A stretch of DNA of 64,000 nt, from assembly GCA_030378005.1 (NCBI GenBank), contig JAUCGF010000089.1, forward strand, positions 1-64,000, given 5' to 3'. This DNA is from Desulfococcaceae bacterium HSG9 (GTDB lineage Bacteria > Desulfobacterota > Desulfobacteria > Desulfobacterales > JAUCGF01). The position numbers and the translations under genes were made by a program. The notes below the pieces were generated by a model. That model saw nothing but the letters and a program-made list of their open reading frames with translations, ran no database searches and was not told where the DNA came from. Of this stretch, positions 5,002-34,935 are shown piece after piece. The stretch's first letter is position 1, and every line of letters starts with the position of its first letter.

Positions 5002-5044
5002 ATCGAAAAGTTTTTGAAAGGTGACGAACGGCATGTCTGTTTTC

Positions 5045-5200
5045 AGCTCCGTAGGAGCGGCATATTTGTAGAATCCGAATCCTCAGTGTCAGCTAAGTCC
5101 CATAGGGACGGCATATTCCGATGCGGACATGCCGTCCCTATGGGACTCAAAAAGGGGACGGGGTTGACATCTGCTACAAACATGTCGCTCCTACGGAGCT
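5045..5200. repeat. Nested palindromic repeat in the efflux operon
   Basis: Outer 27-nt inverted arms (5045-5071 and 5174-5200, beginning AGCTCCGTAGGAGC) enclose a second inverted pair of 19-nt arms (5096-5114 and 5129-5147, AGTCCCATAGGGACGGCAT, exact). The two pairs belong to different sequence families. The structure fills most of the 318-bp gap between the second outer-membrane factor and the adaptor gene, and could affect read-through or mRNA stability. Confidence 0.8.
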
Positions 5201-11246: not shown

Positions 11247-14200
11247 ATGAACACACCCTCTGCGAACAAAGAACAAACCATGCAAGCATCCATCGATATT
11301 TTTAATATTCATCAAAAGATAATGGATGATTATGAGCATTTTGTCGGCAGCTTTATCAATATTAAAGATGCCCAGATTAAAGCCGCTGTGGAAGCCGAGA
11401 TCGATCAGGGAAAATTCTGGCCTGAACCTCTGATACAGTTCAATCCTTCCTTTGAACAGGGCGAAGCGGCCCAGGCGCTTTGCGACAGTGGTGGGTTGCA
11501 TCCCGATATAGCCAAAATTTTTAAAAATTACGACCTGTTCAAACATCAGGTTAAAGCAATCAAAAAGGGCGTCCAAGGCTTGGATTTTGTTGTCACGTCG
11601 GGCACAGGCTCAGGCAAGTCGCTCACTTTTCTTGCTACTGTTTTTGATTATCTGCTAAAAAACAAAGCCGCAAAAGGAATCAAAGCCGTTATTGTTTATC
11701 CGATGAACGCTTTGATCAATTCGCAGTCAGAGGAGATAACCAAATTCAAGGATAACTACGAATCCGAACCAGGCCAGACGTTTCCGATCAGTTTTGCAAA
11801 ATATACGGGGCAGGAAGGCGAAGACCGGCGCAAAGCGGTGAAAGAGGAACTTCCTGATATTATTCTGACCAATTATATGATGCTGGAGTTGATCCTGACA
11901 CGCTCAAAAGAAAACAGTATCCGCAATTCGTTGTTTGATAATTTAAAATTCCTTGTATTTGATGAACTGCACACTTACAGAGGCAAACAGGGGTCGGATA
12001 TTGCGCTGTTGATTCGAAGGATTAAAGCGCAAGCGGCACAGCCTGTTTTATGTATCGGAACATCCGCCACAATGGCATCCGAAGGCTCTGTTTCCGATCA
12101 AAAAAAGAGCGTTGCCCAAGCAGCCTCTGAAATATTCGCCGCTTCGTTTTCAGAAGAACAGATCATTAATGAATACTTGACCAGGTGTTTCGATTATGAT
12201 GGCGCATTACCGACCCAACAAACCCTGGCTGATGCTTTACAAGCGAAAATTGATCCGGCTGTCCCTGAAGCCCATTTAAAAATGCATCCTCTGAGTATAT
12301 GGCTTGAAAACCGAATCGCCCTTGATGAAAATGATGGGATGCTGGTAAGAAACAAGCCCATGCGGTTTTCCGAAATTGTGAGCCGCCTGGCCCTGGATTC
12401 CGGTGTGGATGATCGCTTATGCACCAAACAATTACGGCGGTTTTTAAGATGGCTGGCCAATGTCAATGCCATACAAGCGGATAAAAGATACACCTTTCTG
12501 CCGTATAAAATCCACCAGCTCATATCCCAAACCGGAACGGTGCATGTTTCCTTAGACAACAGCGCTGACCGCATCATCAGCCTTGATCCGGCCACACATA
12601 AAGGCCGGGGAGAGTCGCGCGTCCCCATATTTCCGGCAGTGTTCAGCCGAATTTCGGGCGATACGTTTATTTGTGTGAATAAATCTATTGATGATCAAAA
12701 ATTAAAACCGCGCGAGTTCAGAGAGATTTTAAGCGATGAAGAAGATATCACCTCCGGTTATATTATTCAGGATATGGATGTATGGAATCCGGCTACTGAC
12801 TTGGAGCAGTTGCCTGATGCCTGGATTCAGACAGACAAACAGGGCCGTTATAAACCGCAAAAAAAATACAAGGACAGGTTGCCCCGGAAAATCTATTTTG
12901 ATCGCCAAGGAAATTTTTCTGGCAGAAATGAATATGAATACCAAGGCTGGTTTATGCCGGCCAAGCTTTTATTTGATCCCACCTGTGGCGCTCAATACGA
13001 TCCCAAGACCAGCGAAGCCACCAAACTGACCCGCCTGGGCAGCGAAGGCCGCAGCACATCCACTACGGTGTTAGCTTATTCGATCTTAAAGCAATTGGAA
13101 GAACACGGCTTTCAAGAAAAAGACCAAAAGCTGCTTAGTTTCACCGATAATCGCCAGGATGCGGCCCTGCAATCAGGCCATTTCAACGATTCTTTAAAAG
13201 TGATCCGTCTTCGGGCGGCGATCTATCAAGCCCTTGTTAAATACAAGGAGTTAGATTTTACAAATCTGGATCAAGCCATCTTCGAGGCGCTTGATTTGTC
13301 CCCGGAAGAATACGCGGCCAAACCGGAAACCGCCTTTCCTGGCGCAATTAAGGACAATGAAGACGCCTTTAAACATTATCTGATGTATCGCGCTTTATAT
13401 GATTTAAGACGCGGCTGGCGTGTGGTGCTGCCCAATCTTGAACAGTGCGCCCTGTTGACGATTGATTATAAATACCTTAAAGAAAATTGCGCGTCCGATG
13501 CACTCTGGCAAAAGGTCCCTTTTCTAAATATTCTGTCACCCCTGGAGCGCGCTGAAGTCATGTATCAGATTTTGGATTTTTTTAGAAAGTCGTATGCCTT
13601 GCACAGTGAAGTGTATTTATCGAATAATGCCATTCATGCCAAAAGCAAAGTGATCCGGGAAAGGTTAAAACAGGCCTGGAAATTTGATGAAAATGAAAAA
13701 ATCGACGTTCCAGTTAAAATGGGGTATGAGCCTTTAAAAAGAGGTTCCCGGGTTTTTTGGAAAAGTGTCGGCCCTGCCAGCGCTTTGGGCAAATACCTTA
13801 AATATGAAGCCAAACAAAAAGATATTGATTTAAACCGCCAAGCGTATAATAAATTAATTCAGGTTTTATTGAAGCAATTAGGCAATGCCGGATGGCTGCA
13901 CCCAACCACAGGAAAAAATAAGGCTGATAAGGAAACCCCTTTATACCAACTGCGCGTTGACCAGATTATCTGGAAACTCGGTGATGGCAAGCGGGTTAAG
14001 CAGGATTTCGTTAAAATCAGGTCATACAAAAACTATGAGCAGAAACCCAATACGTTTTATCAGAAATTTTATAAAACCGATTTTAGCTGCCAAAAGAAAC
14101 TGATTGGAAAAGAACACACCGGACAGCTTGGCAATGCTGATCGAATTGAGCGGGAAGAAAAATTCAAGGAAGGTGAATACAGCGCCCTGTTTTGTTCCCC

Positions 14201-16367
14201 CACAATGGAGCTTGGAATCGATATATCCGAATTAAGTGTTGTCCACATGCGTAATGTTCCGCCCAACCCCGCCAATTATGCGCAAAGAAGCGGCCGCGCC
14301 GGGCGAAGCGGCCAAGCCGCGCTCGTATTCACCAGTTGTTCGGCGTATTCTCCCCATGACAGCCACTACTTCAAACATGCCCAAGACCTGGTTGCGGGCG
14401 CGGTGGCTCCGCCCCTGATCGATCTGACCAATAAGGAGCTGTTAGAAACCCACTTAAACGCGGTCTGTTTGGCACAAATCCGCCTAAACGAACTCAACCA
14501 AAGCCTGATTGATCTGATGGATAAGGATAATAAAGCAAAACTGCCGCTTTTGCCCGAGATCAAGGAAACGCTGAATCTGGGTCAGCAATCCAAAAAGGCG
14601 ATCTGGCATATTTTTAAGAAAGTGATATCCGATTTCAAGTCTTTGAAATCACCCGCAATGGCTTGGATGGATGATGAGCAGATCGACCGCATTATCAACA
14701 CGTTTTCCCAAAATTTCAACCGTGCCTTGGACCGCTGGCGAAGGTCATACACATCAGTTCAAAATCAATTGGCCAGGGCCAATCAGATAATCGAAAGCGG
14801 CATCTATTTGAGCAATTCCAATGAAATGAAAGAAGCCAAAAGAAATGTCGCTCAGGCCATTCGGCAACGAGACCTACTCGAAAACAGAGTGTTCTACGGC
14901 AGCCTTTCGGAATTTTACCCCTATCGCTATCTTGCGGCCGAAGGTTTCTTGCCCGGTTATAATTTCACCCGCCTGCCTATCCGAACCTTTATTCCGGCAG
15001 GCGATTCCGGTGAGTATATATCCCGGCCCCGTTTCATCGCGTTAAGAGAGTTCGGGCCGCGCAATATCATTTATCACAAAGGTTCCAAATACCAAATTGA
15101 GCAGTTATCCGCCCAGGAAGTCGAACTGAATTTGCAGAAAGCCAAAGTCAGCAAAAATTCCGGCTATATTATGATGGGGGATGAGTTTTCTTATGAAATC
15201 TGTCCTTTCAGCGATGTCTCTCTCAGCGGCGAGGCGAGCGAAATATATACCCACCTTCTTGAAATGGCGGAAACCCGCACACGCCAAATGGACCGGATAT
15301 CGTGTGAAGAGGAGGAAAGATTGTCGCGCGGCTTTGACGTAAAGACCTATTTTTCCATGCCTGCCGGAGGGCTTGACACGGTCCGCAAAGCCAAGATAAA
15401 AAATGAAGGGGAAGAATTTTTATTTATCCGCTATCTCCCTCGCGCCCGTTTGATTCAGATCAATCGCAAATGGATACGGTCCAAAGAAAAAGGGTTTCTC
15501 ATGGGGTTGAACTCCTGCCAATGGAAAAAAGAGACCTATAACGCTGATGCGGAAACCGCCGAACCGGTCGAAAGAGTCAAACTGATCGCTTATGACACCG
15601 CCGACGCCTTGTACATCGAACCCATCAAAGCCCTGGACATCACCCCCGCCGGCGTAATTACATTGCAATATGCCTTAAAACGTGCGATTGAAAAGGTGTT
15701 TCAGGCTGAACCTCGTGAAATCGGCGCGGAACTGATGGGCGATGAACAGCAGCCCAACATTTTTATTTATGAGGCGGCTGAGGGCAGTTTGGGAATTTTG
15801 TCGCAATTTATTGAAGATAAAGCTGTGTTTGGCAAGGTCATTGACCAGGCCATCGCGATATGCCGATATGATGACCCTGATTATAAGGACGAAGCCTCTT
15901 ATGATGATCTGCTGAGTTATTATAACCAGCGCTATCATGATGTGATCAACCGTTATGAAATTCAGGAGGCCTTGGCAAAACTGAAAATATGTGACGTTGA
16001 AATCATTACCAACCAAACTTTTGGTGATTATGAACAGCATTATCAGCAGCTTTTAAATCGGATTGATCCTGATTCCATTACCGAGTTGAAATTTTTGAAT
16101 TATCTTTATGACAATGGCTTGAAACTCCCGGATGCCGCCCAAAAAACCGTTGAAGGCGTCTTGTGCCAACCGGATTTTTTCTACGAACCGGATGTTTGGG
16201 TGTTTTGTGACGGCAAACCGCATGACAAACCGACCGTCAAGGCCAAAGATAAGTTGCAGCGCGCCGCTATCCTGAACCGTGGCGATCAGGTTTGGGTGTA
16301 TTATTATATGGATAAGCTTGATCAAATAATTGGCAAAAGACCGGATATTTTTAAAAAGGTAAAGTAA
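11247..16367 (+). CDS. Large DEAD-box helicase with DUF1998-like and C-terminal nuclease-like domains (DISARM DrmA/Druantia DruE-like)
   Basis: A 1706-aa superfamily 2 helicase. Visible motifs: Walker A TSGTGSGKS at residues 117-125, DELH at 239-242, GTSATM soon after, and a helicase C-lobe with CSPTMELGIDISEL and QRSGRAGRSG near 1013. This motif set is that of the YprA/MrfA helicases. A DUF1998-like region follows at about 1450-1560, with FIYEAAEGSLGIL from about 1507. The last 90 residues (CQPDFFYEPDVWVFCDG, then LNRGDQVWVYYYM) have the spacing of a Vsr-like PD-(D/E)xK nuclease. Helicase plus DUF1998 in one chain recalls DrmA+DrmB of DISARM and DruE of Druantia. The gene heads a same-strand set with an SNF2 helicase and an adenine methyltransferase, so defence is inferred from context. 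Confidence 0.8.
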   Translation: MNTPSANKEQTMQASIDIFNIHQKIMDDYEHFVGSFINIKDAQIKAAVEAEIDQGKFWPEPLIQFNPSFEQGEAAQALCDSGGLHPDIAKIFKNYDLFKHQVKAIKKGVQGLDFVVTSGTGSGKSLTFLATVFDYLLKNKAAKGIKAVIVYPMNALINSQSEEITKFKDNYESEPGQTFPISFAKYTGQEGEDRRKAVKEELPDIILTNYMMLELILTRSKENSIRNSLFDNLKFLVFDELHTYRGKQGSDIALLIRRIKAQAAQPVLCIGTSATMASEGSVSDQKKSVAQAASEIFAASFSEEQIINEYLTRCFDYDGALPTQQTLADALQAKIDPAVPEAHLKMHPLSIWLENRIALDENDGMLVRNKPMRFSEIVSRLALDSGVDDRLCTKQLRRFLRWLANVNAIQADKRYTFLPYKIHQLISQTGTVHVSLDNSADRIISLDPATHKGRGESRVPIFPAVFSRISGDTFICVNKSIDDQKLKPREFREILSDEEDITSGYIIQDMDVWNPATDLEQLPDAWIQTDKQGRYKPQKKYKDRLPRKIYFDRQGNFSGRNEYEYQGWFMPAKLLFDPTCGAQYDPKTSEATKLTRLGSEGRSTSTTVLAYSILKQLEEHGFQEKDQKLLSFTDNRQDAALQSGHFNDSLKVIRLRAAIYQALVKYKELDFTNLDQAIFEALDLSPEEYAAKPETAFPGAIKDNEDAFKHYLMYRALYDLRRGWRVVLPNLEQCALLTIDYKYLKENCASDALWQKVPFLNILSPLERAEVMYQILDFFRKSYALHSEVYLSNNAIHAKSKVIRERLKQAWKFDENEKIDVPVKMGYEPLKRGSRVFWKSVGPASALGKYLKYEAKQKDIDLNRQAYNKLIQVLLKQLGNAGWLHPTTGKNKADKETPLYQLRVDQIIWKLGDGKRVKQDFVKIRSYKNYEQKPNTFYQKFYKTDFSCQKKLIGKEHTGQLGNADRIEREEKFKEGEYSALFCSPTMELGIDISELSVVHMRNVPPNPANYAQRSGRAGRSGQAALVFTSCSAYSPHDSHYFKHAQDLVAGAVAPPLIDLTNKELLETHLNAVCLAQIRLNELNQSLIDLMDKDNKAKLPLLPEIKETLNLGQQSKKAIWHIFKKVISDFKSLKSPAMAWMDDEQIDRIINTFSQNFNRALDRWRRSYTSVQNQLARANQIIESGIYLSNSNEMKEAKRNVAQAIRQRDLLENRVFYGSLSEFYPYRYLAAEGFLPGYNFTRLPIRTFIPAGDSGEYISRPRFIALREFGPRNIIYHKGSKYQIEQLSAQEVELNLQKAKVSKNSGYIMMGDEFSYEICPFSDVSLSGEASEIYTHLLEMAETRTRQMDRISCEEEERLSRGFDVKTYFSMPAGGLDTVRKAKIKNEGEEFLFIRYLPRARLIQINRKWIRSKEKGFLMGLNSCQWKKETYNADAETAEPVERVKLIAYDTADALYIEPIKALDITPAGVITLQYALKRAIEKVFQAEPREIGAELMGDEQQPNIFIYEAAEGSLGILSQFIEDKAVFGKVIDQAIAICRYDDPDYKDEASYDDLLSYYNQRYHDVINRYEIQEALAKLKICDVEIITNQTFGDYEQHYQQLLNRIDPDSITELKFLNYLYDNGLKLPDAAQKTVEGVLCQPDFFYEPDVWVFCDGKPHDKPTVKAKDKLQRAAILNRGDQVWVYYYMDKLDQIIGKRPDIFKKVK

Positions 16368-16397
16368 ACCGATGGAATTTCTATGTATTCGGAAATG

Positions 16398-16591
16398 TAG
16401 GGTGGGTGAAGCGCAGCGCAACCCACCATCGTCCCCCGAGGAGTGCGAAAGTTAAGTGGAGCGGAGGAACGGAGCGGAACGGTCTTTCGCTGATTATTTT
16501 AGCGAAAGACCGCTTCGCTTAACTTCCGCACTCCTAAACGGCATTCAAACTCGTAAAAATGGTGGGTCTCGCTGCGCTTCACCCTGCCTAC
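16398..16591. repeat. Nested palindromic repeat between the two helicase genes
   Basis: Outer 32-nt inverted arms (16398-16429 and 16559-16590) carry TAGGGTGGGTGAAGCGCAGC and end in ACCCACC, so each arm is itself partly palindromic. Inside lies a second imperfect palindrome (about 16439-16491 / 16501-16535) of the GGAGTGCG...CGCACTCC family with an AGCGAAAGACCG core. Its left arm carries about 16 extra bases. The structure occupies nearly the whole 240-bp gap. Confidence 0.8.
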
Positions 16592-16607
16592 AAAACAAAT
16601 TAAGCCT

Positions 16608-19454
16608 ATGAAATATCAAGCAGGTTCTTTGGTCACCGCCCGAAACAGAGACTGGGTGGTGCTTCCTTCTGAAGATGACAAACTGGTTTTATTAAAACCG
16701 CTGGGTGGCTCGGAAGATGAAATAACGGGCATCTATCTGCCGCTGGGTTTTGCCTTGGATAAAATCGAATCCGCGGATTTCCCCTTGCCTGGCGCAAATG
16801 ACTTGGGCGACATCGCTTCGGCACGGGTGCTGTACAATGCCGCGCGTTTATCCTTTCGTAACGGTGCCGGGCCGTTTCGGTCGCTGGCAAAACTGTCTTT
16901 CCGGCCGCGACCCTACCAAATGGTACCTCTGATCATGGCGCTTAAACAGCCAGGCCCTGTACGCCTGTTAATTGCCGATGATGTGGGCGTGGGCAAAACT
17001 GTTGAAGCCCTGATCATCTTAAAAGAGCTTCTGGAGCGCAGACAAATCAAACGCTTTGCCGTTATTGTGTTGCCGCATTTATGTGAACAGTGGCAGACCG
17101 AGTTGAAAGCCAAATTCAGTATTGATGCCGTGATTATCCGGTCAAATACCCAGGCCCGGCTTGACCGCGAAATCCCCGGTGATGAAAGTGTTTTCCACCA
17201 TTATCCCTATCAAGTCATTTCAATCGATTATATCAAATCGGACCAGCGCAGGCAGGTTTTTATTCAGGAATGCCCTGAACTGGTGATTGTGGATGAGGCT
17301 CATACATGTTCCGCGGCAATCGGTGTAAAAACCGTCCGGCAGCAGCGCTATCAGCTTATCAAGGATATTGCGAAAAAACCCGACCAAAATATGATCTATC
17401 TGACCGCAACCCCTCACAGCGGCAAGCAAGGCCAGTTCAGCGCCCTTTTGGGATTGATCAAACCGGATTACCAACTGCTCGATTTGTCCAAGGCCGACAG
17501 GAATCAGCGCCGCGACCTGGCCAAGTATTATGTTCAGCGAAGACGGGCGGATGTTGAAAAGTGGATGAACAAAGACACCCCGTTTCCCAAACGCGATGCC
17601 GGTGAATTTCAATATGACCTGTCAACCCGCTATTCCGCTTTTTATGATGACATGCTTGACTTTGCCCTGGGCTTAACTCGCAGCGGCGATCTTCACCAAG
17701 GCCGCCGGCGTTTAAGATATTGGTCGGCCCTGGCCCTGCTTCGCGGCGTGATGTCCAGCCCGGCCGCGGGTATTGATATGCTTAAAAACCGCATTAAAAA
17801 GCAAACCGCTTGCGGCGATACGGATGACGACCTTGAAACCCTTGCCAACCCGATGATGGATGGCGATTATGACAGCGCCCGGGATTACACGCCCACCGGC
17901 ATTATCAACAAAACCGATTGGAGCGGCAGCGAAAATAAAAAGCTGAATCTGCTTGCCGACCAGCTTGGCCGATTGCGCGGTGTCAAGCACGATTTCAAAG
18001 CCGCAAGGGCGCTTGAGATCATTAAAAAATGGCTTAAACAAGGATTTAATCCGGTGGTTTTTTGCCGGTTTATCAGAACCGCCAATTATCTTGGAGAGCT
18101 GTTCAAAGGCGCTATGAAGACCGTAAATATTCAGGCGGTTACCAGTGAAGACCCGGATGAGGTTCGCAAAGCCCGCATTGATGATATGCGAGCATCAGCC
18201 AAGAAAGTTCTGATTGCCACGGACTGCCTGAGCGAAGGCATCAATCTTCAAGATCAGTTCACCGCCGTGCTGCACTATGATCTTCCCTGGAACCCCAACC
18301 GCTTGGAGCAGCGCGAAGGCCGCATCGACCGCTATGGCCAAATAGCTGAAACCGTCAAGGCGTATCTTTTGTACGGCGCTGACAACCCCATCGACGGTGT
18401 GGTGTTAAAGGTTCTTTTACGCAAAGTCCGCGAAATCCGAAGGTCAACCGGAATTTCAATTCCGTTTCCCGAAGACAGCCAATCGCTGATGGACACGGTT
18501 CTTCAAGCGGTGATATCCAATTCACAGGCCGCAACCCAAAGGCGCAACGCCAAACAACTGACCTTTGATTTCAGCCAGGCGGATGAGGTTAAACAAAAAG
18601 AGCTTATCGCCACCAAGGCCATTGAAAAAGCCGCCGACCGTGAACATGCCGTTAGAAGTGTTTTTGCCCAACATGCCATCAAAGCCTATCAAATCGAGCA
18701 GGATTTAAAACAATCCGATGAGGCTATCGGAAACCCTGAAGCAGTAGAGTCTTTTGTAACCCTGGCCTTGCGTAATATTTTAGGGGTTCAGATCACCCAG
18801 GATAAAAAAAAGAAAGGATATACGCTTTATACTGCCAACCTTCCACCGGTTTTACAAAGCGCAATCACGCCCCTGAAACAGCTTAAAGTCAGTTTTTTCT
18901 CACCCTGTGCGGAAGGCTATATCTACCTGGGCCGCAATCATCTTTTTGTGGAACAGCTTTGCCAATATCTGATGGCTGATTCATTAAACCGCCCCACCCA
19001 AGACGGCCCGGCCAGAGCGGCGGTTATCAAATGCCGGGATGTTGCTGTCAAAACGGTTCTTTTGATGTTCCGCGTCCGCAACGTGATTGAGGAAAAGCGC
19101 GTCCGCAATCAGTTTGTGGCCGAAGAAATGCTTTTATGGGGTTATGCTGGCAGCCCCCAGGATAATAATTTTTTAGATCAAGATCAGGTTAAACTGCTGA
19201 TGTCCCATGTCGCGCCATCAGCCAATCTTACCGACCCGGCCAAAGCCGCTTTTCTTGAAAACGAGCTGGAAAATATCGCCGAACTCCGTCAAGAGTTCGA
19301 TAAAATCGCTTTGCAAAGAGCTGAAATCCTGATCCAAGCCCATGAAAGATTCCGCAAAGTGATGGGCGGTAAAAGATATAAAGCAGTTGAACCGGTGCTT
19401 CCCATGGATTTGATGGGGGTTTATATTTTGCTGCCGGATCGAACCAACGCATAA
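16608..19454 (+). CDS. SNF2-family helicase, DISARM DrmD-like
   Basis: A 948-aa SNF2/RapA-type ATPase. The N-terminal 100 residues hold a conserved leader (YQAGSLVTARNRDWVVLPSE). Motif I is ADDVGVGKT at residues 123-131, the DEAH box lies at 229-232, and TATPHSG follows. The C-lobe has VLIATDCLSEGINLQ and LEQREGRIDRYGQ, both classic for SNF2. The leader, length and C-terminal region match DrmD-type helicases of class 1 DISARM. In such systems the helicases are thought to track or remodel foreign DNA beside an N6-adenine methyltransferase, and that partner follows here. No strong Shine-Dalgarno precedes ATG 16608. DrmD membership is a recognition by architecture and should be tested by HMM. 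Confidence 0.8.
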   Translation: MKYQAGSLVTARNRDWVVLPSEDDKLVLLKPLGGSEDEITGIYLPLGFALDKIESADFPLPGANDLGDIASARVLYNAARLSFRNGAGPFRSLAKLSFRPRPYQMVPLIMALKQPGPVRLLIADDVGVGKTVEALIILKELLERRQIKRFAVIVLPHLCEQWQTELKAKFSIDAVIIRSNTQARLDREIPGDESVFHHYPYQVISIDYIKSDQRRQVFIQECPELVIVDEAHTCSAAIGVKTVRQQRYQLIKDIAKKPDQNMIYLTATPHSGKQGQFSALLGLIKPDYQLLDLSKADRNQRRDLAKYYVQRRRADVEKWMNKDTPFPKRDAGEFQYDLSTRYSAFYDDMLDFALGLTRSGDLHQGRRRLRYWSALALLRGVMSSPAAGIDMLKNRIKKQTACGDTDDDLETLANPMMDGDYDSARDYTPTGIINKTDWSGSENKKLNLLADQLGRLRGVKHDFKAARALEIIKKWLKQGFNPVVFCRFIRTANYLGELFKGAMKTVNIQAVTSEDPDEVRKARIDDMRASAKKVLIATDCLSEGINLQDQFTAVLHYDLPWNPNRLEQREGRIDRYGQIAETVKAYLLYGADNPIDGVVLKVLLRKVREIRRSTGISIPFPEDSQSLMDTVLQAVISNSQAATQRRNAKQLTFDFSQADEVKQKELIATKAIEKAADREHAVRSVFAQHAIKAYQIEQDLKQSDEAIGNPEAVESFVTLALRNILGVQITQDKKKKGYTLYTANLPPVLQSAITPLKQLKVSFFSPCAEGYIYLGRNHLFVEQLCQYLMADSLNRPTQDGPARAAVIKCRDVAVKTVLLMFRVRNVIEEKRVRNQFVAEEMLLWGYAGSPQDNNFLDQDQVKLLMSHVAPSANLTDPAKAAFLENELENIAELRQEFDKIALQRAEILIQAHERFRKVMGGKRYKAVEPVLPMDLMGVYILLPDRTNA

Positions 19455-19498
19455 GCCCAAGACCATGAATATAAACACAACGATCTCTCATGCCCCCT

Positions 19499-19522
19499 CG
19501 TAATCGTAATCGTAATCGTAAT
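19499..19522. repeat. Hexanucleotide microsatellite (CGTAAT)4
   Basis: Four exact CGTAAT units. A related tract in the opposite sense, (GATTAA)n ending GATTACGA, lies at 19791-19856. The two tracts bracket the inverted-repeat element at 19577-19750 as roughly inverted outer arms. Confidence 0.85.
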
Positions 19523-19576
19523 CGTGTTTTTAAACCCAAAACACAAAATGTTGCTGTATTTATGAAAATTAGATTT

Positions 19577-19750
19577 AACCTTATTTCAGTTTTTTAAAAC
19601 CTTAGTAGAATATGGAAAAACAAATTAAAACCTTATTACCTTATTGATTACAGGCGGTTCGGCTATGTTACAGGAAAATAAGATAATAAGGTAAAAAGAT
19701 AGATTGGCAGATTGTTTGCTACTAAGGTTTCAAAATCAAAAAATAAGGTT
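19577..19750. repeat. Composite inverted repeat, copy 1 (upstream of methyltransferase gene)
   Basis: The ends are AACCTTATTT and its inverse AAATAAGGTT. Inner words are also mirrored: AAAACCTTAGTAG versus CTACTAAGGTTT, and ACCTTATTACCTTAT versus AATAAGGTAA-like sequence. A second copy with the same order of words lies at 23738-23918, so the methyltransferase gene is bracketed by two direct copies of one palindromic element of about 175-180 bp. Confidence 0.8.
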
Positions 19751-19790
19751 TGGCTTTATCGGTAACATGCTAATGTGGTTTTAAATTTTC

Positions 19791-19856
19791 GATTAAGATT
19801 AAGATTAAGATTAAGATTAAGATTAAGATTAAGATTAAGATTAAGATTAAGATTAC
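19791..19856. repeat. Hexanucleotide microsatellite (GATTAA)10-11
   Basis: About ten uninterrupted GATTAA units ending in GATTAC, 75 bp before the methyltransferase start codon. The tract could vary in length by slippage and so change promoter or leader spacing. No promoter could be placed with confidence. Confidence 0.85.
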
Positions 19857-19930
19857 GAATGCCAACCGGCTTAATCCAATCGAATCGGATTTTGCAGGGA
19901 TTTGATTTTTGAATAGGTTTTTAAAATATT

Positions 19931-22900
19931 ATGAAATACACCACCATAAGAATAGAAGGCGCCATCCTATCAGCCGATATTTTAGATAAAATCAAGCAAG
20001 GGGATATCCCCGGCCAGCTTGCCAAAGACTTTGGCTTTGACGCCAAAACCAAGGTCAAAGACGAAATCGCCCGCACCTGGGCGGACGCTCAAGACCTTTG
20101 GCGGATTTTCAAAAGGCAAAAAGCCAAAGTAAGCGCAAGCAAGCACGGGGCCACGGAAACCCGAAGATATTGGATCGTTCCCTTGTTAGGGTTATTGGGC
20201 TATGACGCGGAGTTGTCCAAAGCCCAAAGCGTTCACGGCAAATCGTATGCGATCAGCCATTGCGCCGCCAATCGCGACCGCTTTCCCATCCATATTGCCG
20301 GGTTTAATGACAGCCTTGATAAAAAAAGGACCGGCAGCGGCCCCAGGATGTCGCCCCATGCGCTGCTTCAGGAATATATCAACCTGACCGAACATCTTTA
20401 CACCCTGGTAACCAACGGCATTTATTTAAGACTTTTGCGGGACAGCAGCCGGCTGATCAAGCTTTCATTTATCGAGTTTGATCTTGAGACCATGATGGAA
20501 GAAGCCCATTACGCCGATTTTGCCATTATGTATCGCCTTGTGCATAGCAGCCGTATGCCGCTGAAAACAGACCTCGGAGCGGAAAGTCTAATTGAAAAGT
20601 ATCATCAGGATGCCCTGGATTCCGGTTCACGCATTCGCGCCGGATTAAGCCAGGCGGTTGAAAGATCGATTCTGGCTCTGGCCAATGGTTTTCTTGAAAA
20701 TCCCGACAATGGGCCGCTTCGGGAAAAAATAGATCAGAATGAAATATCCGCAACGGCCTATTATCAATTTCAACTGCGCCTGATCTACCGGCTTTTGTTT
20801 TTGATGGTTATCGAAGAAAGAAATCTGATCTTTGCCCATAATGCGGATAAGGCCAAACGGGAAATCTATTATGCCTTTTACAGCATCGACCGAATCAGGA
20901 AACTGAGTGAAAAACCGTATCTAACCGACCGCAGATTCAGCGATCTGTGGGTAGCTTTAAAAAATACGTTTCATCTGTTTGAAAGCCAAGCCAAAGGCAA
21001 ACATCTGGGCATCCGGCCGCTGGCCGGCGATCTTTTCGGCTACAATGCCATCGGCATATTAAACAGTTGCGATCTTGATAACCAAGTGCTTTTGGGATGT
21101 TTAAGGAATTTAAGCGTTTTTTTCAATAAAACCACTGGCCAGAAAATGCGCATCAATTACGCGGCTTTAAATGTGGAAGAGTTCGGTTCGGTTTATGAGC
21201 GTTTATTGGAGTATGATCCCCAATTTTCAATGGCAAACAGCGCCTGGCGGTTTGATTTTGTCAAAGGCCGCGGCCGTTCCGCATCCGGCTCGCATTACAC
21301 GCCCGACGAGCTGGTTCAGCCCCTGATCAAGCATTCCCTGGATTATATCATTCAGGACCGGTTGAATTCATCCGACCAAACGTCCGCCAAGGAAAACGCC
21401 CTGCTGTCTATCAAAGTTTGCGATGTCGCCTGCGGAAGCGGTCATATCCTGCTGAACGCGGCCCGCAAAATCGGCGCAGAACTGGCCAAGGTCAGAACCG
21501 GCGAAGACCAGCCGTCACCCGCGCCCCTGCGCCGGGCGATCCGGGATGTGATTAAAAACTGTATTTACGGTGTGGATAAAAACCCGTTGGCCGTGGAGTT
21601 ATGCAAGGTGGCCTTGTGGCTCGAAGCGCATAATCCCGGCGAACCGTTAAATTTTCTGGATCATCATATCAAATGCGGGGATGCCATTGTGGGGTTGGCC
21701 CATAAGGAAGAGCTTGCAAGCGGTATCCCTGATCAGGCATTTAAAAAGATGCCGGAAGATGACAAGGATATAAGAGCCGAGCTGGCCAAGCGCAACAAAA
21801 GGGAAATAAAAGAGCGCCGGCAGATTCATTTTAACTTTGAAGATGCGCTCAAAGGCTCGCTCAAAAATATCTTGCAACTCTTTGACCGCTTTAACCGTCT
21901 TCCTGAAAACAGCATTGATGAGATCCAAGACAAGCGCCGGGAATACAATAAGATGACCTCCGGCTCGAATTGGATGCGCCTGAAAACATTAGCTGATATT
22001 CAAGTCGCCCAGTTTTTTATCCCCAAGAATGCGCTAAATGTAAGCAAGATCGTTACCTATGAAGAATATATGGATTATTTAAGCGGCACAAAAGCGGTTC
22101 ATCCCATGAAAGCGGGCAAGGCCGGCGGGGTGGCCGCAGAAAAACGCTTTTTTCATTATTTTCTTGAATTTCCGGAGATTTTTGCCCAAGAAGGGTTTGA
22201 TTGTATTTTGGGGAATCCGCCGTATCTGGGCGGACGAAATTTAACGGTTAATTACGGATTCCGGTATTCAAATTTTCTTAAAACTAATTATCCATCGTGT
22301 ACAGGAAATACTGACTTAGTCGCGTTTTTCTTGATGAGAGCTTATTCGATTTTAGATGAGAAAAGTTTTATGAGTTTTATATGCACAAAAAGCATTTATC
22401 AGGGTGATACTCGTATAGCATGTTTAGAAGAACTTATTAAGCATAAAAAAGCAACTATTAACTTTGGAGTAAGGTCAGTAAGATGGCCAGGTAAAGCGAT
22501 GGTTGTTGTATGCCTTTTGTCTGTTAGCAGAAAAGACTTTGTATTACAGAAAATGTTAGATGGGAAAAAAATAAGCCATATAAACTCATTTCTCGAAAAT
22601 AGCACTATGACATTTAATCCTTTTCGGCTTAACAGTAATAAAGGAATATGCTTCAAAGGATCAGAGCCAGCTATAGGTTTTATGATAAGTAAAAACGAAG
22701 CTAAGGAATTAATTGACAAAAGTAAAATAAACAGAGAGGTAATTTACCCCTATCTAAATGGTGATGATCTAAATTCTGAAGTAACACAGTTACCTACAAG
22801 GTATGTTATCAATTTCTTTGACTGGTCAATTGAAAAAGCCCAAAAATATAAAGGCCCATTCAACATAGTTAAGCAAAGGGTTAAAACTATTTGGGACGAG

Positions 22901-23710
22901 AAAAAAGATAGTTGCAATACATCAAATTGGTGGTGGCATAGAAGAAGATCAGAAAAATTATATCATGGTCTTTATAATTTTGACCGAGCAATATGTGTTG
23001 GCTTTACTAGTAAATACGCGAAATTTTCTTTTGCTCCTGTCAATATAATTTATTCAAATTCTGTTGTTGTTGTATGTAGGCAAGATGCTAAATATTTTGC
23101 AATTCTTAATTCAAGCTTTCATGAGTATTGGTCCTGGAAAAATTGCTCTACCATGGGAGACAGCACACTCCGTTATACTCCATCAAGTGCTTTTAGCACA
23201 TATCCATTCCCAGATTTATCTCATTTTGACCTACAACTTGAACAATTTGGCAATAGTTATTCCAAACTTCGAAGTAGAATTATGGCCGAACTAAGCATCG
23301 GGCTAACTAAAGTTTACAATCTGTTCAACTCAAAAAAACTATCAGTTGAAGATATCGTTAATAAAAGCAAACAATGCGAGGAACAATGTAAAGAAACGTA
23401 TATAAATATTCTTAGTCTCCGTGAACTACACAAAAATATGGATCAAACGGTTCTCAAATCCTACGGCTGGGAGGATTTAGACCTGGCGCATGATTTTTAC
23501 GAAGTGGATTACCTGCCGGAAAACGACCGCATCCGCTATACAATCACACCGGCTGCCCGCAAAGAAGTCTTAAAGCGCTTGTTAAAACTGAACCACGCCA
23601 TTCATGACCGGGAACTGAAAGAGGGGCTATCCTCAAAAAGAAAAACCGGCAGGAAAAGAACTGACAAGCATTTCAAGCCGGGCGCATCCCAGCAAATAAA
23701 AATTTGTTGA
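19931..23710 (+). CDS. N6-adenine DNA methyltransferase, PglX/DISARM DrmMI-like
   Basis: A 1259-aa Eco57I-like class I SAM-dependent methyltransferase. The SAM-binding motif DVACGSGH starts at residue 498, the acidic motif follows (YGVDKNPLAVELCKVALW), and the catalytic NPPY lies at 762-765. About 480 residues precede the catalytic core, with no obvious PD-(D/E)xK motif, so cleavage by this protein is not predicted. Residues about 770-1170 should hold target recognition. Their DNA (about 22240-23440) is clearly AT-rich compared with both flanks: 32% GC on one 60-base line (22381-22440) against 63% on another (21421-21480). This suggests replacement of the recognition domain by recombination. 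Size and architecture fit DrmMI/PglX proteins. As last gene of the three-gene locus it likely marks self DNA. Confidence 0.85.
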   Translation: MKYTTIRIEGAILSADILDKIKQGDIPGQLAKDFGFDAKTKVKDEIARTWADAQDLWRIFKRQKAKVSASKHGATETRRYWIVPLLGLLGYDAELSKAQSVHGKSYAISHCAANRDRFPIHIAGFNDSLDKKRTGSGPRMSPHALLQEYINLTEHLYTLVTNGIYLRLLRDSSRLIKLSFIEFDLETMMEEAHYADFAIMYRLVHSSRMPLKTDLGAESLIEKYHQDALDSGSRIRAGLSQAVERSILALANGFLENPDNGPLREKIDQNEISATAYYQFQLRLIYRLLFLMVIEERNLIFAHNADKAKREIYYAFYSIDRIRKLSEKPYLTDRRFSDLWVALKNTFHLFESQAKGKHLGIRPLAGDLFGYNAIGILNSCDLDNQVLLGCLRNLSVFFNKTTGQKMRINYAALNVEEFGSVYERLLEYDPQFSMANSAWRFDFVKGRGRSASGSHYTPDELVQPLIKHSLDYIIQDRLNSSDQTSAKENALLSIKVCDVACGSGHILLNAARKIGAELAKVRTGEDQPSPAPLRRAIRDVIKNCIYGVDKNPLAVELCKVALWLEAHNPGEPLNFLDHHIKCGDAIVGLAHKEELASGIPDQAFKKMPEDDKDIRAELAKRNKREIKERRQIHFNFEDALKGSLKNILQLFDRFNRLPENSIDEIQDKRREYNKMTSGSNWMRLKTLADIQVAQFFIPKNALNVSKIVTYEEYMDYLSGTKAVHPMKAGKAGGVAAEKRFFHYFLEFPEIFAQEGFDCILGNPPYLGGRNLTVNYGFRYSNFLKTNYPSCTGNTDLVAFFLMRAYSILDEKSFMSFICTKSIYQGDTRIACLEELIKHKKATINFGVRSVRWPGKAMVVVCLLSVSRKDFVLQKMLDGKKISHINSFLENSTMTFNPFRLNSNKGICFKGSEPAIGFMISKNEAKELIDKSKINREVIYPYLNGDDLNSEVTQLPTRYVINFFDWSIEKAQKYKGPFNIVKQRVKTIWDEKKDSCNTSNWWWHRRRSEKLYHGLYNFDRAICVGFTSKYAKFSFAPVNIIYSNSVVVVCRQDAKYFAILNSSFHEYWSWKNCSTMGDSTLRYTPSSAFSTYPFPDLSHFDLQLEQFGNSYSKLRSRIMAELSIGLTKVYNLFNSKKLSVEDIVNKSKQCEEQCKETYINILSLRELHKNMDQTVLKSYGWEDLDLAHDFYEVDYLPENDRIRYTITPAARKEVLKRLLKLNHAIHDRELKEGLSSKRKTGRKRTDKHFKPGASQQIKIC

Positions 23711-23737: not shown

Positions 23738-23918
23738 AACCTTATTTAAGTTTTTAAAACCTTAGTAGAATATGAAAATCTGATAAACGGAAACCTTATT
23801 ACCTTATCAGATGCCGCTGTTTTGTTATGAAACAGGATATTTTGTACAAAAATAAGGTAATAAGGTAAAGGATAGGACAGTATTTCAGCTACTAAGGTTT
23901 AAAATTCTAAAATAAGGT
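23738..23918. repeat. Composite inverted repeat, copy 2 (downstream of methyltransferase gene)
   Basis: Same word order as the element at 19577-19750: AACCTTATTT end, AAAACCTTAGTAGAATATG, ACCTTATTACCTTAT, then inverse words AATAAGGTAATAAGGTAAA, CTACTAAGGTTT and AAATAAGGT. It begins 27 nt after the methyltransferase stop. Conservation is in the words, while the middle differs, which suggests RNA- or DNA-hairpin constraint. Confidence 0.8.
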
Positions 23919-23951
23919 CAGATGTCAGCCGATAATCTAACAAAGTAGTAA

Positions 23952-24098
23952 GGGGATTCCCAATAAATAAACTACCCATTTTAGTCGTGATGTAGGGTGG
24001 GTGTAGGGAAGCGAAACCCACCGAATGCTTATTAATGGTAGGTTTCGTTGCTCTACACCCACCCTACATTTTGGGTATATTATTTTTTGGGAAATCCC
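23952..24098. mobile_element. MITE-like element, long copy (147 bp)
   Basis: Twelve-base terminal inverted repeats (GGGGATTCCCAA left, TTGGGAAATCCC right, one mismatch) are flanked by TAA on both sides, consistent with a 3-bp target duplication as made by some IS5-group elements. The interior holds a long hairpin with TGTAGGGTGGGTGTAG / CTACACCCACCCTACA arms. A shorter copy lacking this hairpin lies at 34863-34935. There is no coding capacity, so mobility would need a transposase in trans. Confidence 0.75.
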
Positions 24099-24423: not shown

Positions 24424-24966
24424 ATGAATAAACGTGGTTTTACCTATCTTGGTGCTTTGATTATGATCGTGGTTTGTGGAATTTCCCTGAGTGGTGCGAG
24501 TGCCTATCATAAAACAATTGTAAAACGCTCAAAAGAGGCCGAATTGCTGTTCCGTGGCGACCAAATCCGACGGGCGCTCCAATCTTTTTATGAACATCCG
24601 CCAGCAGGGAAACCTCACGCATATCCGCGTTCTATGCAAGACCTGCTGAAAGACCCCCGCTATTTGGGTGTTCGTCGGCATCTCAGGAAGAATTATCCCG
24701 ATCCGATGACAAGCCATGGGGAATGGGCGTTCATTCGAGATTCTAAAGGGCGTATCAAAGGCGTTTTTAGCCCAAGCCAGGACAAACCCCTTAAAACAGG
24801 CAACTTCCCAAATGAATATAAACATTTTGAAATTTTAGAAAAACCTGAAATGAGTGAAACCGGTTACTTTTCAGAAGATGCAGATGTCAAAAAGAGTTCA
24901 AAATATTCGGATTGGAAGTTTATTTTCCTTCCCAAGACGGTTAAAAAAAACGCCGGGCAGGGTTGA
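24424..24966 (+). CDS. Type II secretion/type IV pilus pseudopilin-like protein
   Basis: A 180-aa protein with a class III prepilin-type leader: MNKRG followed by FTYLGALIMIVVCGISLSG. Cleavage by prepilin peptidase would fall after Gly5, leaving an N-terminal Phe and a hydrophobic helix. The glutamate usual at mature position 5 is replaced by Gly, as in some minor pseudopilins with GFTYLG-type starts, so methylation or assembly may be atypical. The rest has a predicted helix (EAELLFRGDQIRRALQSFYE) and a soluble domain with PRSMQDLLKDPR. No other secretion gene is adjacent, so it is an orphan or a minor component of a system encoded elsewhere. It lies 52 bp upstream of a small exported protein on the same strand. 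Confidence 0.7.
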   Translation: MNKRGFTYLGALIMIVVCGISLSGASAYHKTIVKRSKEAELLFRGDQIRRALQSFYEHPPAGKPHAYPRSMQDLLKDPRYLGVRRHLRKNYPDPMTSHGEWAFIRDSKGRIKGVFSPSQDKPLKTGNFPNEYKHFEILEKPEMSETGYFSEDADVKKSSKYSDWKFIFLPKTVKKNAGQG

Positions 24967-29919: not shown

Positions 29920-31866
29920 ATGAAAAAAATTATACGTTCCCCTGCACCTTCATGGTTTCCAGGCGAATTAAAAAAATGGAAGCAAGAGAATAACATACTA
30001 AACGAATTCAGATTTAGTCGCCGTCAATACCAAATGTTATTAAATGCGCTGTCTTCAATGACCCAGCATCATTGTTCTTTTTGTGACGAATATCTCAGTG
30101 ATAAAGAAAAAATGATTGTCCATTTCAAACCGGTGTCCTTATTTCCCTTATTTCCCTTAGAAGCCAAGGAATGGGAAAACTTGTTCTTGTGTTGTACAGA
30201 TTGCCATGCCGCTAAAAGCACTCAATTTGATAAACGTCTGATCAAACCTGATGACCCCAATTATCAATTTGATAAATTTTTTGAAATTGATTTGAAAACC
30301 GGGGAATTGCATCCAAGAGGGAGTGAAGAAAACTACATACGCATGGGGGCCACATTTAAAATTAATTTGGCAACCGGTAAACTGAATCCAAGAGGGAGTG
30401 AAGAAAACCGCAAACGTGCTGCGATTACAATTTCAATTTTTAAACTCAATGGATATGAAAGACCGCAAGCACGGCTAAACGCATTGCGAGCTTATCAACA
30501 GAAATATAGTGAATATGAGCCATTAAAAGTTAATGAATATTCTTATCGCTTTTTCATTGAAGAAAGTTGTAATCTTCCGAGACCTTTTCAACCTAAATTT
30601 GAGGAAAAAAATGGAATAGTTGATATTAATATTTATGCTATGCTAAAAGTCGATAAAATACGCATTAAAAATATCAAAATATCAAACATCAAATGTTTTT
30701 CCGCTGCCGAAATAAATTTTAATGCGCATGATGACAATGCCCTGATTATCGGTGTGAACGGAGTCGGCAAATCAACCATACTGCAATTATTGGCCATCGG
30801 TTTGAGGGGCATAAAACGGATGCCTTTTCCTTACAATTGGAAAAAAGTGGTAAAAACAGGACATCAGACTGGTCAATTTCAAATAACATTGCAAGAATCC
30901 TATCAGACAGTTAATCAGCCTTTGACAACCTTTGCATTTGAAATTGATGAAAAAGATACGATTACATGTGTTGAAGGCCAAGATTATTTAAGTGTCAGAA
31001 AGAATGATTTATTGATTGCGGGATATGGTGCCGGACGCCATATCAAACTTGAAGATGTCAGTGCTTTTGAAGATATTGAACCGGTCGCTACGCTGTTTGG
31101 TGAAAACGGTTATCTGAAGCATATCAAATCAAGCGCGACTTATAAATCCGTCAGTGAAAATTTTGATGAAATTCGACCGCTAATCAATGCCGTTCTTGAT
31201 CGGGCGGATGATCATTTCAAAGTATTTTGGGTTAATTATGATTCTGACAGTTTATATTTTAAAACACCTTTTAATACAGATGACACGATTCCCATTGAAG
31301 CCTTATCCGAAGGTTTTAAATCGACTTTTATTTGGCTATTCGATATGATTATACGCATCGTTGAAACTGGCGGTGATATAAGCAACGCGCATCAAATAAT
31401 GGGAATTGTGCTTATTGATGAAATTGATTTGCATTTGCATCCGGTTTGGCAGCGCACTATTTTGATGGGTTTGGAAGATGTTTTCCCCAATATTCAGTTT
31501 ATTGCCACAACCCATAGCCCGCTTGTGGCTCAAACTGTAAAAAAAGATAATTGGGTTATCCTGGATACGGATGATGTTGGTCATGATGTCAAAGTGATCG
31601 ATAAAAATATCACTTCGGAACTGAGTTACAGCGCAATCATCAGAGAAATTTTCGACATCCGTTCCCCTTTCAGCAAGAAAATCGAACTTGAATTGCACAA
31701 GTTCCGGAAAATGCGTGACGCACTCCTGAAAAATGAAGATATTGATGAAGCCGAATTTAAAAACCTGATCAATAAAATTGCTCATAAAGGCGTTGAAACA
31801 GAAGGCGTGATGCGCCGGGAAGTTGCCCAACTGGAACGGCAAACAGGCCGGGAATTTAATCTATGA
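29920..31866 (+). CDS. ptuA: Septu PtuA-like AAA ATPase with fused N-terminal HNH-like domain
   Basis: A 648-aa protein in two parts. Residues 1-215 are homologous to the HNH protein encoded next: APSWF start, C52-x2-C55, HFKP at 68-71, WENLFLCC at 85-92, C95 and a YRFFIE end. Key HNH residues look degraded: the usual Glu before the His is Val67, and the Asn-type residue after the last Cys is His96. A tandem duplication inside this domain repeats TGELHPRGSEEN as TGKLNPRGSEEN. Residues 225-648 are an ABC/OLD-type ATPase: Walker A GVNGVGKST from 278, Walker B GIVLIDEID with D500-E501, then TTHSPLVAQTV. The ATPase plus HNH pair is the composition of Septu defence. The fusion is unusual, and the stop overlaps the next start (ATGA). 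Confidence 0.75.
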   Translation: MKKIIRSPAPSWFPGELKKWKQENNILNEFRFSRRQYQMLLNALSSMTQHHCSFCDEYLSDKEKMIVHFKPVSLFPLFPLEAKEWENLFLCCTDCHAAKSTQFDKRLIKPDDPNYQFDKFFEIDLKTGELHPRGSEENYIRMGATFKINLATGKLNPRGSEENRKRAAITISIFKLNGYERPQARLNALRAYQQKYSEYEPLKVNEYSYRFFIEESCNLPRPFQPKFEEKNGIVDINIYAMLKVDKIRIKNIKISNIKCFSAAEINFNAHDDNALIIGVNGVGKSTILQLLAIGLRGIKRMPFPYNWKKVVKTGHQTGQFQITLQESYQTVNQPLTTFAFEIDEKDTITCVEGQDYLSVRKNDLLIAGYGAGRHIKLEDVSAFEDIEPVATLFGENGYLKHIKSSATYKSVSENFDEIRPLINAVLDRADDHFKVFWVNYDSDSLYFKTPFNTDDTIPIEALSEGFKSTFIWLFDMIIRIVETGGDISNAHQIMGIVLIDEIDLHLHPVWQRTILMGLEDVFPNIQFIATTHSPLVAQTVKKDNWVILDTDDVGHDVKVIDKNITSELSYSAIIREIFDIRSPFSKKIELELHKFRKMRDALLKNEDIDEAEFKNLINKIAHKGVETEGVMRREVAQLERQTGREFNL

Positions 31867-32459
31867 ATAAAATAGAAAGAACGCCGGCACCGCAGTGGTT
31901 GGAAAAAAAATGGGAAGAATGGGGGAAACGCTGGGCGCAACGTTATGCCAAAACACAACTTGGCAGCAGCTTCACATGGTACACTAATCAGAAGAAAAGC
32001 CGTCCGGAACTGGTTGAAAAATTGGCGGCCATGACGAAAAACCATTGTTCCTTTTGTGATGCCTTTCCGATGGGACGTCGTATTCCATACACGATTGAAC
32101 ATTTCAGACCGAAAACAAAGTTCCCCTTGCTTGCTTATAAATGGAACAATCTGTTTTTATGTTGTGGATTATGCCAGCAAAAAGGCGATGCCTTTGATGA
32201 ACAATTATTGAAACCTGATGAAGATGAGTATCATTTTGATCATTATTTCGTTATAAATTGGGATTCCGGCGAACTGATGCCCAATGAAGGCCAAAGCGCT
32301 GACAATCAGATGCGTGCGCAAATTACAATACAGCTTTATCGCCTTAATGCAAATGGCAAACCTGAAGACAGACTTGAGGAATTGAACAGATGGCTGGATT
32401 CTGCAAAGCCGAATATTGATGAATGGGCATACCGCTTTTTTATCGAAAGAGGCGTGTGA
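31863..32459 (+). CDS. ptuB: Septu PtuB-like HNH endonuclease
   Basis: A 198-aa HNH protein of the PtuB/TIGR02646 type. It has C62-x2-C65 (NHCSFCD), IEHFRPK with E79-H80 as core catalytic residues, WNNLFLCC at 94-101 and C104, followed by the conserved QLLKPDEDEYHFDHYF and a QLYRLNANG...EWAYRFFIE end. The catalytic Glu-His pair is intact, in contrast to the paralogous domain fused to the ATPase upstream. In Septu, PtuA and PtuB form a complex that cleaves nucleic acid on phage infection. The same is inferred here from pairing, 4-nt translational coupling and motifs. The two genes sit between an acyl-CoA mutase gene and a hydantoinase-like gene, which looks like an insertion into a metabolic cluster. 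Confidence 0.78.
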   Translation: MNKIERTPAPQWLEKKWEEWGKRWAQRYAKTQLGSSFTWYTNQKKSRPELVEKLAAMTKNHCSFCDAFPMGRRIPYTIEHFRPKTKFPLLAYKWNNLFLCCGLCQQKGDAFDEQLLKPDEDEYHFDHYFVINWDSGELMPNEGQSADNQMRAQITIQLYRLNANGKPEDRLEELNRWLDSAKPNIDEWAYRFFIERGV

Positions 32460-34709: not shown

Positions 34710-34862
34710 ATAACTTTTTATTTTAACGAAACGCATACCTCTGAAATCAAACTGGCTCCCTATTTGGCAAAAATGATGCGAAGATTGTTTCCATTGAAAG
34801 AAGAACAAAATGATTCTGATAATAATGTTGAAAATGGAATAAGGATAGCGATTTATCAATAA

Positions 34863-34935
34863 GGGGATTCCCAATAAGTAAACTACCCATTTTAGCCGTG
34901 ATGTAGGGTGGGTATATTATTTTTTGGGAAATCCC
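34863..34935. mobile_element. MITE-like element, short copy (73 bp)
   Basis: Terminal inverted repeats GGGGATTCCCAA (34863-34874) and TTGGGAAATCCC (34924-34935) are flanked by TAA on both sides, as in the 147-bp copy at 23952-24098. The outer sequence is nearly identical to that copy (CCCAATAAGTAAACTACCCA, GTAGGGTGGGTATATTA), but the internal 74-bp hairpin is missing. The hairpin has therefore been deleted here or inserted in the other copy. Confidence 0.75.

What the first reader, a model, noticed from the sequence alone, without database searches (positions are those of the whole stretch)
11247..23710. Three-gene helicase-helicase-methyltransferase locus that is neither standard DISARM nor Druantia
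Sequence shows a 1706-aa DEAD helicase + DUF1998-like + Vsr-like C-terminus, a DrmD-like SNF2 helicase and a DrmMI/PglX-like adenine methyltransferase, all on one strand. Class 1 DISARM needs separate drmA, drmB and a PLD nuclease drmC; Druantia centres on a DruE helicase without this set. Here one giant protein could combine DrmA and DrmB functions and supply its own nuclease. I infer a compact three-gene defence system with self-marking by N6-adenine methylation.
Basis: partly seen in the sequence, partly recalled or inferred. Interest (0 to 1): 0.78.

Follow-up and report, generated by a model that had tools for sequence, protein, structure and literature searches.

The report
Zinc-free, DISARM-hybrid ARMADA phage defence
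The three genes are an anti-phage defence system already described in 2025 as ARMADA Type I, but this copy belongs to an apparently undescribed branch whose giant helicase has lost all its zinc-binding sites and whose DNA methyltransferase carries the DNA-recognition half of a different defence system, DISARM.

Summary
In detail: three intact co-directional ORFs encode a 1706-aa DUF1998 helicase ending in a Vsr/DUF559-like nuclease, a 948-aa DpdE/DrmD/RapA-like helicase and a 1259-aa adenine methyltransferase. The claim of a new system fails. Gene set, order and fused nuclease match ARMADA Type I (Bell et al. 2025, PMC12458937), whose Type II relative was shown to block phages. I found the trio on plasmids of four phyla and across Desulfobacterota; neither drmB nor drmC was seen beside it.

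New here is a variant. In 46 other ARMADA-I helicases, wherever the sites are covered, five CxxC pairs (three zinc clusters, including the family-defining DUF1998 one) are intact; in all 12 independent members of the window's clade (Desulfobacterota, Burkholderiales plasmids, one viral contig) every pair is broken. The clade's methyltransferase is a chimera: residues 1-765 are ARMADA-type, 771-1259 match only DISARM class 1 methyltransferases, switching at the NPPY motif. Both traits coincide with one fully supported clade, so each may be a single event and their functional link is a hypothesis. Proposed action: the methyltransferase and RapA-like helicase recognise DNA; the YprA helicase processes it and the nuclease cuts (inferred).

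The parts
11247..16367 (+). YprA-like DEAD helicase with fused OB/CON/DUF1998-type region and C-terminal Vsr/DUF559-like nuclease (ARMADA Type I helicase; ArmC equivalent), 1706 aa
   Evidence: closest solved relatives DruE-like 9tu7 (2.9e-42) and MrfA 6znp (2.9e-21); predicted structure of 1088-1706 has one PDB match at E<=0.001, MrfA 9.8e-7
11595..11621 (+). Walker A, TSGTGSGKS (residues 117-125); DELH at 239-242, motifs V and VI also intact
   Evidence: alignment
12645..12656 (+). Vestigial zinc site 1a: residues 467/470 are S/S (CxxC in all zinc-bearing ARMADA I covering it, ArmC-II and DruE-III)
12975..12986 (+). Vestigial zinc site 1b: residues 577/580 are D/C (CxxC elsewhere)
15150..15161 (+). 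Vestigial zinc site 2a: residues 1302/1305 are S/S (CxxC elsewhere)
15201..15212 (+). Vestigial zinc site 2b: residues 1319/1322 are C/S (CxxC elsewhere)
15897..15908 (+). Vestigial DUF1998/MZB zinc site: residues 1551/1554 are S/D (CxxC elsewhere)
16044..16364 (+). C-terminal Vsr/DUF559-like PD-(D/E)xK nuclease domain, catalytic-type residues E1613, D1643, D1655, H1659 kept
16608..19454 (+). BrxHII/RapA/DpdE-like SNF2 helicase (ArmA equivalent), 948 aa
19931..23710 (+). PglX/DrmMI-like adenine-N6 methyltransferase (ArmB equivalent), 1259 aa
19931..22225 (+). ARMADA-I-type N-terminal half (residues 1-765), through the NPPY motif (762-765, 22214-22225)
22241..23707 (+). DISARM class 1-type C-terminal half (residues 771-1259), target-recognition side (MmeI_TRD 917-1096)
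16393..16590 (.). Palindromic intergenic repeat between helicase genes
19573..19770 (.). Interspersed palindromic repeat between SNF2 and methyltransferase genes; related copy at 23738-23918; 47 matches in the genome

Best explanation
An ARMADA Type I anti-phage system of a distinct, zinc-free clade with a chimeric ARMADA/DISARM methyltransferase. Shown here: gene set, order, intact catalytic motifs, loss of all five CxxC pairs in the helicase, and the switch of relatedness inside the methyltransferase. Inferred: the methyltransferase, with a DISARM-type recognition half, reads a DNA motif and its methylation state together with the RapA/BrxHII-like helicase; on foreign DNA the complex lets the YprA helicase load (by analogy with DruE, on 3' single-stranded ends), translocate, and cut with its C-terminal Vsr-like nuclease, giving non-abortive restriction. 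The helicase presumably keeps its fold without zinc, so the zinc modules would be dispensable in this lineage; they may have been re-fitted when the methyltransferase half was replaced.
For: Gene order YprA-like, BrxHII-like, PglX-like with a fused Vsr-type nuclease is the description of ARMADA Type I, including the reversed order in cyanobacteria, which I also see. Complete trio in all nine plasmid loci inspected, in Pseudomonadota, Chloroflexota, Cyanobacteriota and Deinococcota, and SNF2 gene beside the helicase in 17 of 20 Desulfobacterota loci. Zinc: 10 Cys columns are C wherever covered in the zinc-bearing set and replaced in 12 independent members of the window clade; clade support SH-aLRT 100, one change of state, zinc columns excluded from the tree. 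Chimera: windowed identity to ARMADA I falls from about 20-60% to 5-20% after about residue 765 while identity to DISARM methyltransferases rises from mostly 10-30% to 30-40%; N-half groups with ARMADA I; C-half has no hit in any other ARMADA I methyltransferase. Type II defends non-abortively and needs every gene (PMC12458937).
Against: No ARMADA Type I has been tested against phage in the papers I could read. The paper's Type I reference protein was not available, so membership rests on architecture and gene order, not on a tree with the published reference. The BrxA-like insert was not confirmed. The window's own C-terminal domain has no direct family hit. Zinc loss and methyltransferase swap map to the same single clade, so their association has no independent replicates; DISARM DrmB proteins beside the same type of C-half keep CxxC motifs, so a DISARM-type half does not by itself make zinc unnecessary. 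The paper's supplementary tables could not be read and may already include this clade.
Confidence: 0.85

Rival explanations
1. A genuinely new three-gene defence class, unrelated to described systems.
For: No PADLOC 2023 or NCBIfam model names the set as one system; helicase and SNF2 proteins fall below NCBIfam cut-offs for DrmA and DrmD.
Against: Gene content, order and domain fusion match published ARMADA Type I; proteins align full length at 33-52% with the same trio in other phyla.
Confidence: 0.03
2. A DISARM class 1 system that lost drmB and drmC.
For: Methyltransferase C-half and PADLOC DrmMI hits are DISARM-like; SNF2 protein is DrmD-like.
Against: The helicase is DruE/ARMADA-type with a fused DUF1998 region and matches DrmA only at 1.9e-12; close relatives show no drmB/drmC neighbours; SNF2 and methyltransferase N-half are ARMADA-type.
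Confidence: 0.03
3. An ordinary ARMADA Type I whose zinc loss is neutral drift and whose recognition half was exchanged at random, as restriction specificity domains often are; the two changes are unrelated. (This shares the main identification and disputes only the link.)
For: Each change can be one event on one long branch (about 1.1 changes per column); recognition domains are known to be swapped among restriction enzymes (general knowledge).
Against: All three zinc clusters are lost with no intermediate seen, and the zinc-free state is kept in 12 members across Desulfobacterota and Burkholderiales plasmids with largely fixed replacements (S/S, D/-, S/S or A, C/S, S/D), suggesting a selected, stable state.
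Confidence: 0.5
4. A decayed, non-functional ARMADA locus: Cys loss marks a dying gene and the repeats between genes have broken the operon.
For: Genome-wide repeats lie in both intergenic gaps; some Desulfobacterota relatives are fragments or carry stops (L009/L068, L083).
Against: ORFs are intact, ATPase, methylase and nuclease motifs are kept, and the same Cys replacements occur in tightly packed trios elsewhere (L010, L013, L021).
Confidence: 0.07

Closest known systems
ARMADA Type I (Bell et al. 2025, PMC12458937)
   Same: Same three genes, same order, DUF1998 region and Vsr-type nuclease fused to the helicase, wide phyletic spread often on mobile elements, no drmB/drmC.
   Different: All zinc-binding clusters of the helicase lost; methyltransferase C-terminal half of DISARM type. 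The main text reports loss of the DUF1998 cluster only for Dpd.
ARMADA Type II (E. coli ATCC 8739 / NCTC 12900)
   Same: [quoted passage not shown] experimentally anti-phage.
   Different: 21% helicase identity, different gene order, fourth gene (RelE-GajB-like ArmD) absent here, 9 CxxC motifs in ArmC.
DISARM class 1
   Same: DrmD-like SNF2 helicase and DrmMI-like methyltransferase; methyltransferase C-half homologous end to end.
   Different: Helicase and DUF1998 split into drmA/drmB and nuclease is the PLD protein drmC; none of these is here.
Druantia (DruE) Type III
   Same: Helicase family and fold (PADLOC DruE3 9e-81).
   Different: Druantia III is DruH+DruE with PLD nucleases; no DruH here and the nuclease is Vsr/DUF559-like.
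Dpd
   Same: DpdE is the best full-length model for the SNF2 protein; canonical Dpd YprA homologue also lost the DUF1998 cluster (PMC12458937).
   Different: No 7-deazapurine pathway was recognised next to the trio; helicase is DruE-type, not DpdJ.

Membership tests
[quoted passage not shown]
   order as in PMC12458937
ARMADA Type I | Vsr-type (PD-(D/E)xK) nuclease fused to helicase C-terminus, predicted active | tested here: met
   22 of 29 homologous domains hit DUF559, Vsr weakly; catalytic positions kept; the window's own domain has no direct hit
ARMADA Type I | BrxA-like helical insert and beta-barrel plus MarR-like domains before/inside RecA2 | tested here: inconclusive
   Model of 288-962 (pLDDT 72) has a helical block then beta-rich block; Foldseek found only weak PadR/LmrR-type hits, E 0.33 or worse
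ARMADA Type I | Zinc-binding modules in the inserts and the 4-Cys DUF1998 cluster (typical of defensive YprA homologues, not formally required) | tested here: not met
   All five CxxC pairs broken in the window clade
ARMADA Type I | Phylogenetic placement with published Type I reference | not testable with these tools
   WP_108720193.1 not held; groups with the trio-bearing homologues, far from ArmC-II and DruE-III
ARMADA Type I | Anti-phage activity | not testable with these tools
   Only Type II was assayed in PMC12458937
ARMADA Type II | RelE-GajB-like helicase gene after the set | tested here: not met
   No such gene follows the trio; 24424-24966 has no family hit
DISARM class 1 | Separate drmA, drmB (DUF1998) and PLD drmC | tested here: not met
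   None recognised beside the trio in the window or its close relatives; compare true DISARM loci L125, L129
Druantia Type III | DruH partner and C-terminal PLD domains on DruE | tested here: not met
Dpd | 7-deazaguanine biosynthesis/insertion genes | tested here: not met
   None among the neighbouring genes scanned

The most novel reading that the evidence does not exclude
The clade is a functional hybrid, in effect a new ARMADA subtype: acquiring a DISARM-type recognition half changed which DNA (or which partner surface) the complex reads, and the helicase lost all three zinc clusters as part of the same re-fit. The zinc modules of ARMADA/Druantia helicases would then be the docking or sensing surface for the methyltransferase recognition half, rather than simple fold stabilisers.
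Probability: 0.25. Interest if true: 0.65.

Novelty: new variant of a known kind. Interest (0 to 1): 0.45.

Why it matters
Bell et al. noted that defensive YprA helicases carry many more predicted zinc modules than their housekeeping relatives and proposed that these serve target recognition, stability or complex formation. A clade that lost every one and is still maintained as a complete system is a natural experiment on that question. The same clade shows a visible recombination point between ARMADA and DISARM methyltransferases at the NPPY motif, direct evidence that these systems exchange specificity parts. Both features can be tested with domain swaps in a laboratory E. coli strain.

Tried and rejected
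Considered a new system class and a decayed DISARM: rejected by the ARMADA paper, the trio survey and the trees. Considered sulfidic habitat as the reason for zinc loss: unlikely, since the clade includes Burkholderiales plasmids (Caballeronia from soil). Looked for a conserved fourth gene: none; a DUF2326/SMC-like gene follows the trio only in Paraburkholderia/Caballeronia (with a partial hit in L113), and a Schlafen AlbA_2/HATPase/Fic-like_C gene sits beside it in L049, L107 and L062 but not in the window. Tried to define an empty site in the same-genus genome G001: both flanks exist there but on different contigs, and the genes on the far side lie elsewhere in G000, so no clean insertion point could be drawn. 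Foldseek on the middle region gave nothing significant. A direct PDB search with the window's C-terminal domain alone gave nothing; the family profile gave only weak endonuclease-like hits, best E 0.02. A few calls failed on coordinates or handles.

Full report
Observation. Three ORFs on the + strand at 11247-16367, 16608-19454 and 19931-23710 are exactly as described. Profile searches give a DruE-like DEAD helicase with an MZB/DUF1998 match, a DpdE/DrmD/RapA-like SNF2 helicase, and a DrmMI/Eco57I/MmeI-like adenine methyltransferase. Neighbours are a CusCBA-type metal efflux cluster upstream and, downstream, a small protein without family hits, a lytic transglycosylase and CoA metabolism genes. 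The window lies in a 6.6-Mb draft genome; the closest named relative found is a Desulfobacterales genome.

Identity. The arrangement is that of ARMADA Type I in Bell et al. [quoted passage not shown] I recover the trio in that order in Paraburkholderia, Caballeronia, Roseomonas, Chlorohelix and Deinococcus plasmids (in Chlorohelix with small genes between), and with the helicase last in Nostoc, Planktothrix, Euhalothece and Thermus plasmids. Of 20 Desulfobacterota loci opened, 17 have the SNF2 gene beside the helicase, and the methyltransferase is also present in 13 of those; several others stop at contig ends. The helicase is 50-72% identical to members of its own clade, 33-37% to other ARMADA I and 21% to E. 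coli ArmC (Type II) or DruE. DISARM and Druantia III fail on tested features (see membership table).

Nuclease. The last 107 residues carry E1613, P1642-D1643-F1644 and D1655-G1656...H1659; E, D, D, G and H are 49 of 52 or better in homologues. 22 of 29 homologous domains match DUF559 (best 2.4e-7) and 16 match MTES_1575; the profile finds an endonuclease-like PDB chain at E 0.02. A model of residues 1088-1706 (pLDDT 69) has one PDB match at E<=0.001, the DUF1998 helicase MrfA.

Zinc loss. In the helicase alignment, ten cysteine columns in five CxxC pairs (window positions 467/470, 577/580, 1302/1305, 1319/1322, 1551/1554) are cysteine in every zinc-bearing ARMADA I sequence that covers them. 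One exception is a broken alignment at 1551 in fragment L038, and fragment L087 covers none. They are cysteine in DruE-III and in ArmC-II except for one column where the alignment is uncertain. In the window clade they read SSDC/SSCS/SD or close variants. Clade members: window, L010 (the same contig as L070/L106), L074, L065, L066, L062, L071, L049, L013, L021, L072, and the viral contig L118: 12 independent records, four of them partial. None has an intact pair at any of these five places. A tree built without the zinc columns puts the full-length members in one clade with SH-aLRT 100 and one change of state. The published text describes loss of the DUF1998 cluster only for Dpd; supplementary tables could not be read.

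Chimeric methyltransferase. Residues 1-765 of the methyltransferase align with all ARMADA I methyltransferases examined (34-44%), and the N-half tree places the zinc-free clade within them, with DISARM outside. Residues 771-1259 have no BLAST hit in any of 19 zinc-bearing ARMADA I methyltransferases (several of which are truncated at contig ends) but align end to end at 32-33% with the methyltransferases of two DISARM loci. In 60-residue windows, identity to ARMADA I drops and identity to DISARM rises between about 720 and 840, at the NPPY motif (762-765). Outside the clade, the best plasmid hits of this half that I opened were four DISARM class 1 loci (drmD, methyltransferase, drmA, DUF1998 gene, PLD gene in three; in L128 recognised from gene order and product names only) and one partial methyltransferase. 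All clade members whose methyltransferase reaches this far share it: window, L010, L013, L021, L049, L108. The direction of transfer is not determined.

Mechanism. In Type II all four genes, the Walker motifs and the NPPW motif were needed (the ArmD Walker B change lost only part of the activity), and infected cells stayed alive (PMC12458937). DruE prefers 3'-tailed DNA and is a helicase-nuclease effector (PMC13192584). By analogy the trio here senses DNA through the methyltransferase and RapA-like helicase and processes it through the YprA helicase and its nuclease. Methylation as simple self-marking is not demonstrated, and the Type II data suggest the methyltransferase is part of the defence itself. 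All of this is inference for Type I.

Judgement. The system is known; the variant appears new. The link between zinc loss and the swapped half rests on one clade and is a hypothesis. DISARM DrmB proteins next to the same kind of methyltransferase half keep CxxC motifs, which argues against the simplest version of that link. Sampling was limited to Desulfobacterota genomes, plasmids and viral contigs, so intermediates in other phyla cannot be excluded.

Noticed in passing
window 29920-32459 +: A Septu (PtuA/PtuB) system: the 648-aa PtuA carries its own PtuB-like N-terminal domain (residues 1-137; PDLC00351 1.8e-42) and is followed by a separate 198-aa PtuB (6e-61); it sits between methylmalonyl-CoA mutase and hydantoinase genes.
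   Followed up: partly
window 19573-19770 and 23738-23918; also 16393-16590, 23949-24071, 34860-34916: Several families of palindromic interspersed repeats in and around the operon; the 19573 element has 47 matches in this genome, and another repeat family from 5042-5117 has dozens in the same-genus genome. They widen the gaps between the ARMADA genes, which are short or overlapping in relatives such as L010 and L013.
   Followed up: partly
window 19498-19525 and 19791-19855: Hexanucleotide tandem arrays, TCGTAA x4.7 and GATTAA x10.8, on either side of the repeat element in the SNF2-methyltransferase gap.
   Followed up: no
L069 8194-13713 - (same genome, contig C12): A second YprA-family helicase, Druantia-like (PADLOC DruE1 2.2e-160), next to a 770-aa protein without PADLOC hits; ARMADA and a Druantia-like helicase co-occur in this genome.
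   Followed up: partly
L049 3334-4893, L107 16081-17625, L062 5629-6537: Accessory Schlafen AlbA_2 / HATPase_c_4 / Fic-like_C protein adjacent to the SNF2 gene in some zinc-free ARMADA loci (the L062 copy lacks the AlbA_2 hit); possibly a regulator.
   Followed up: no
L057 7390-12426: A full-length zinc-bearing ARMADA-I helicase with no SNF2 or methyltransferase gene within about 7 kb in a large-contig genome; a KAP NTPase is upstream.
   Followed up: partly
window 51630-55349 - and 35642-36970 -: Long ORFs with in-frame repeats (126, 51 and 42 nt periods), probably repeat proteins.
   Followed up: no
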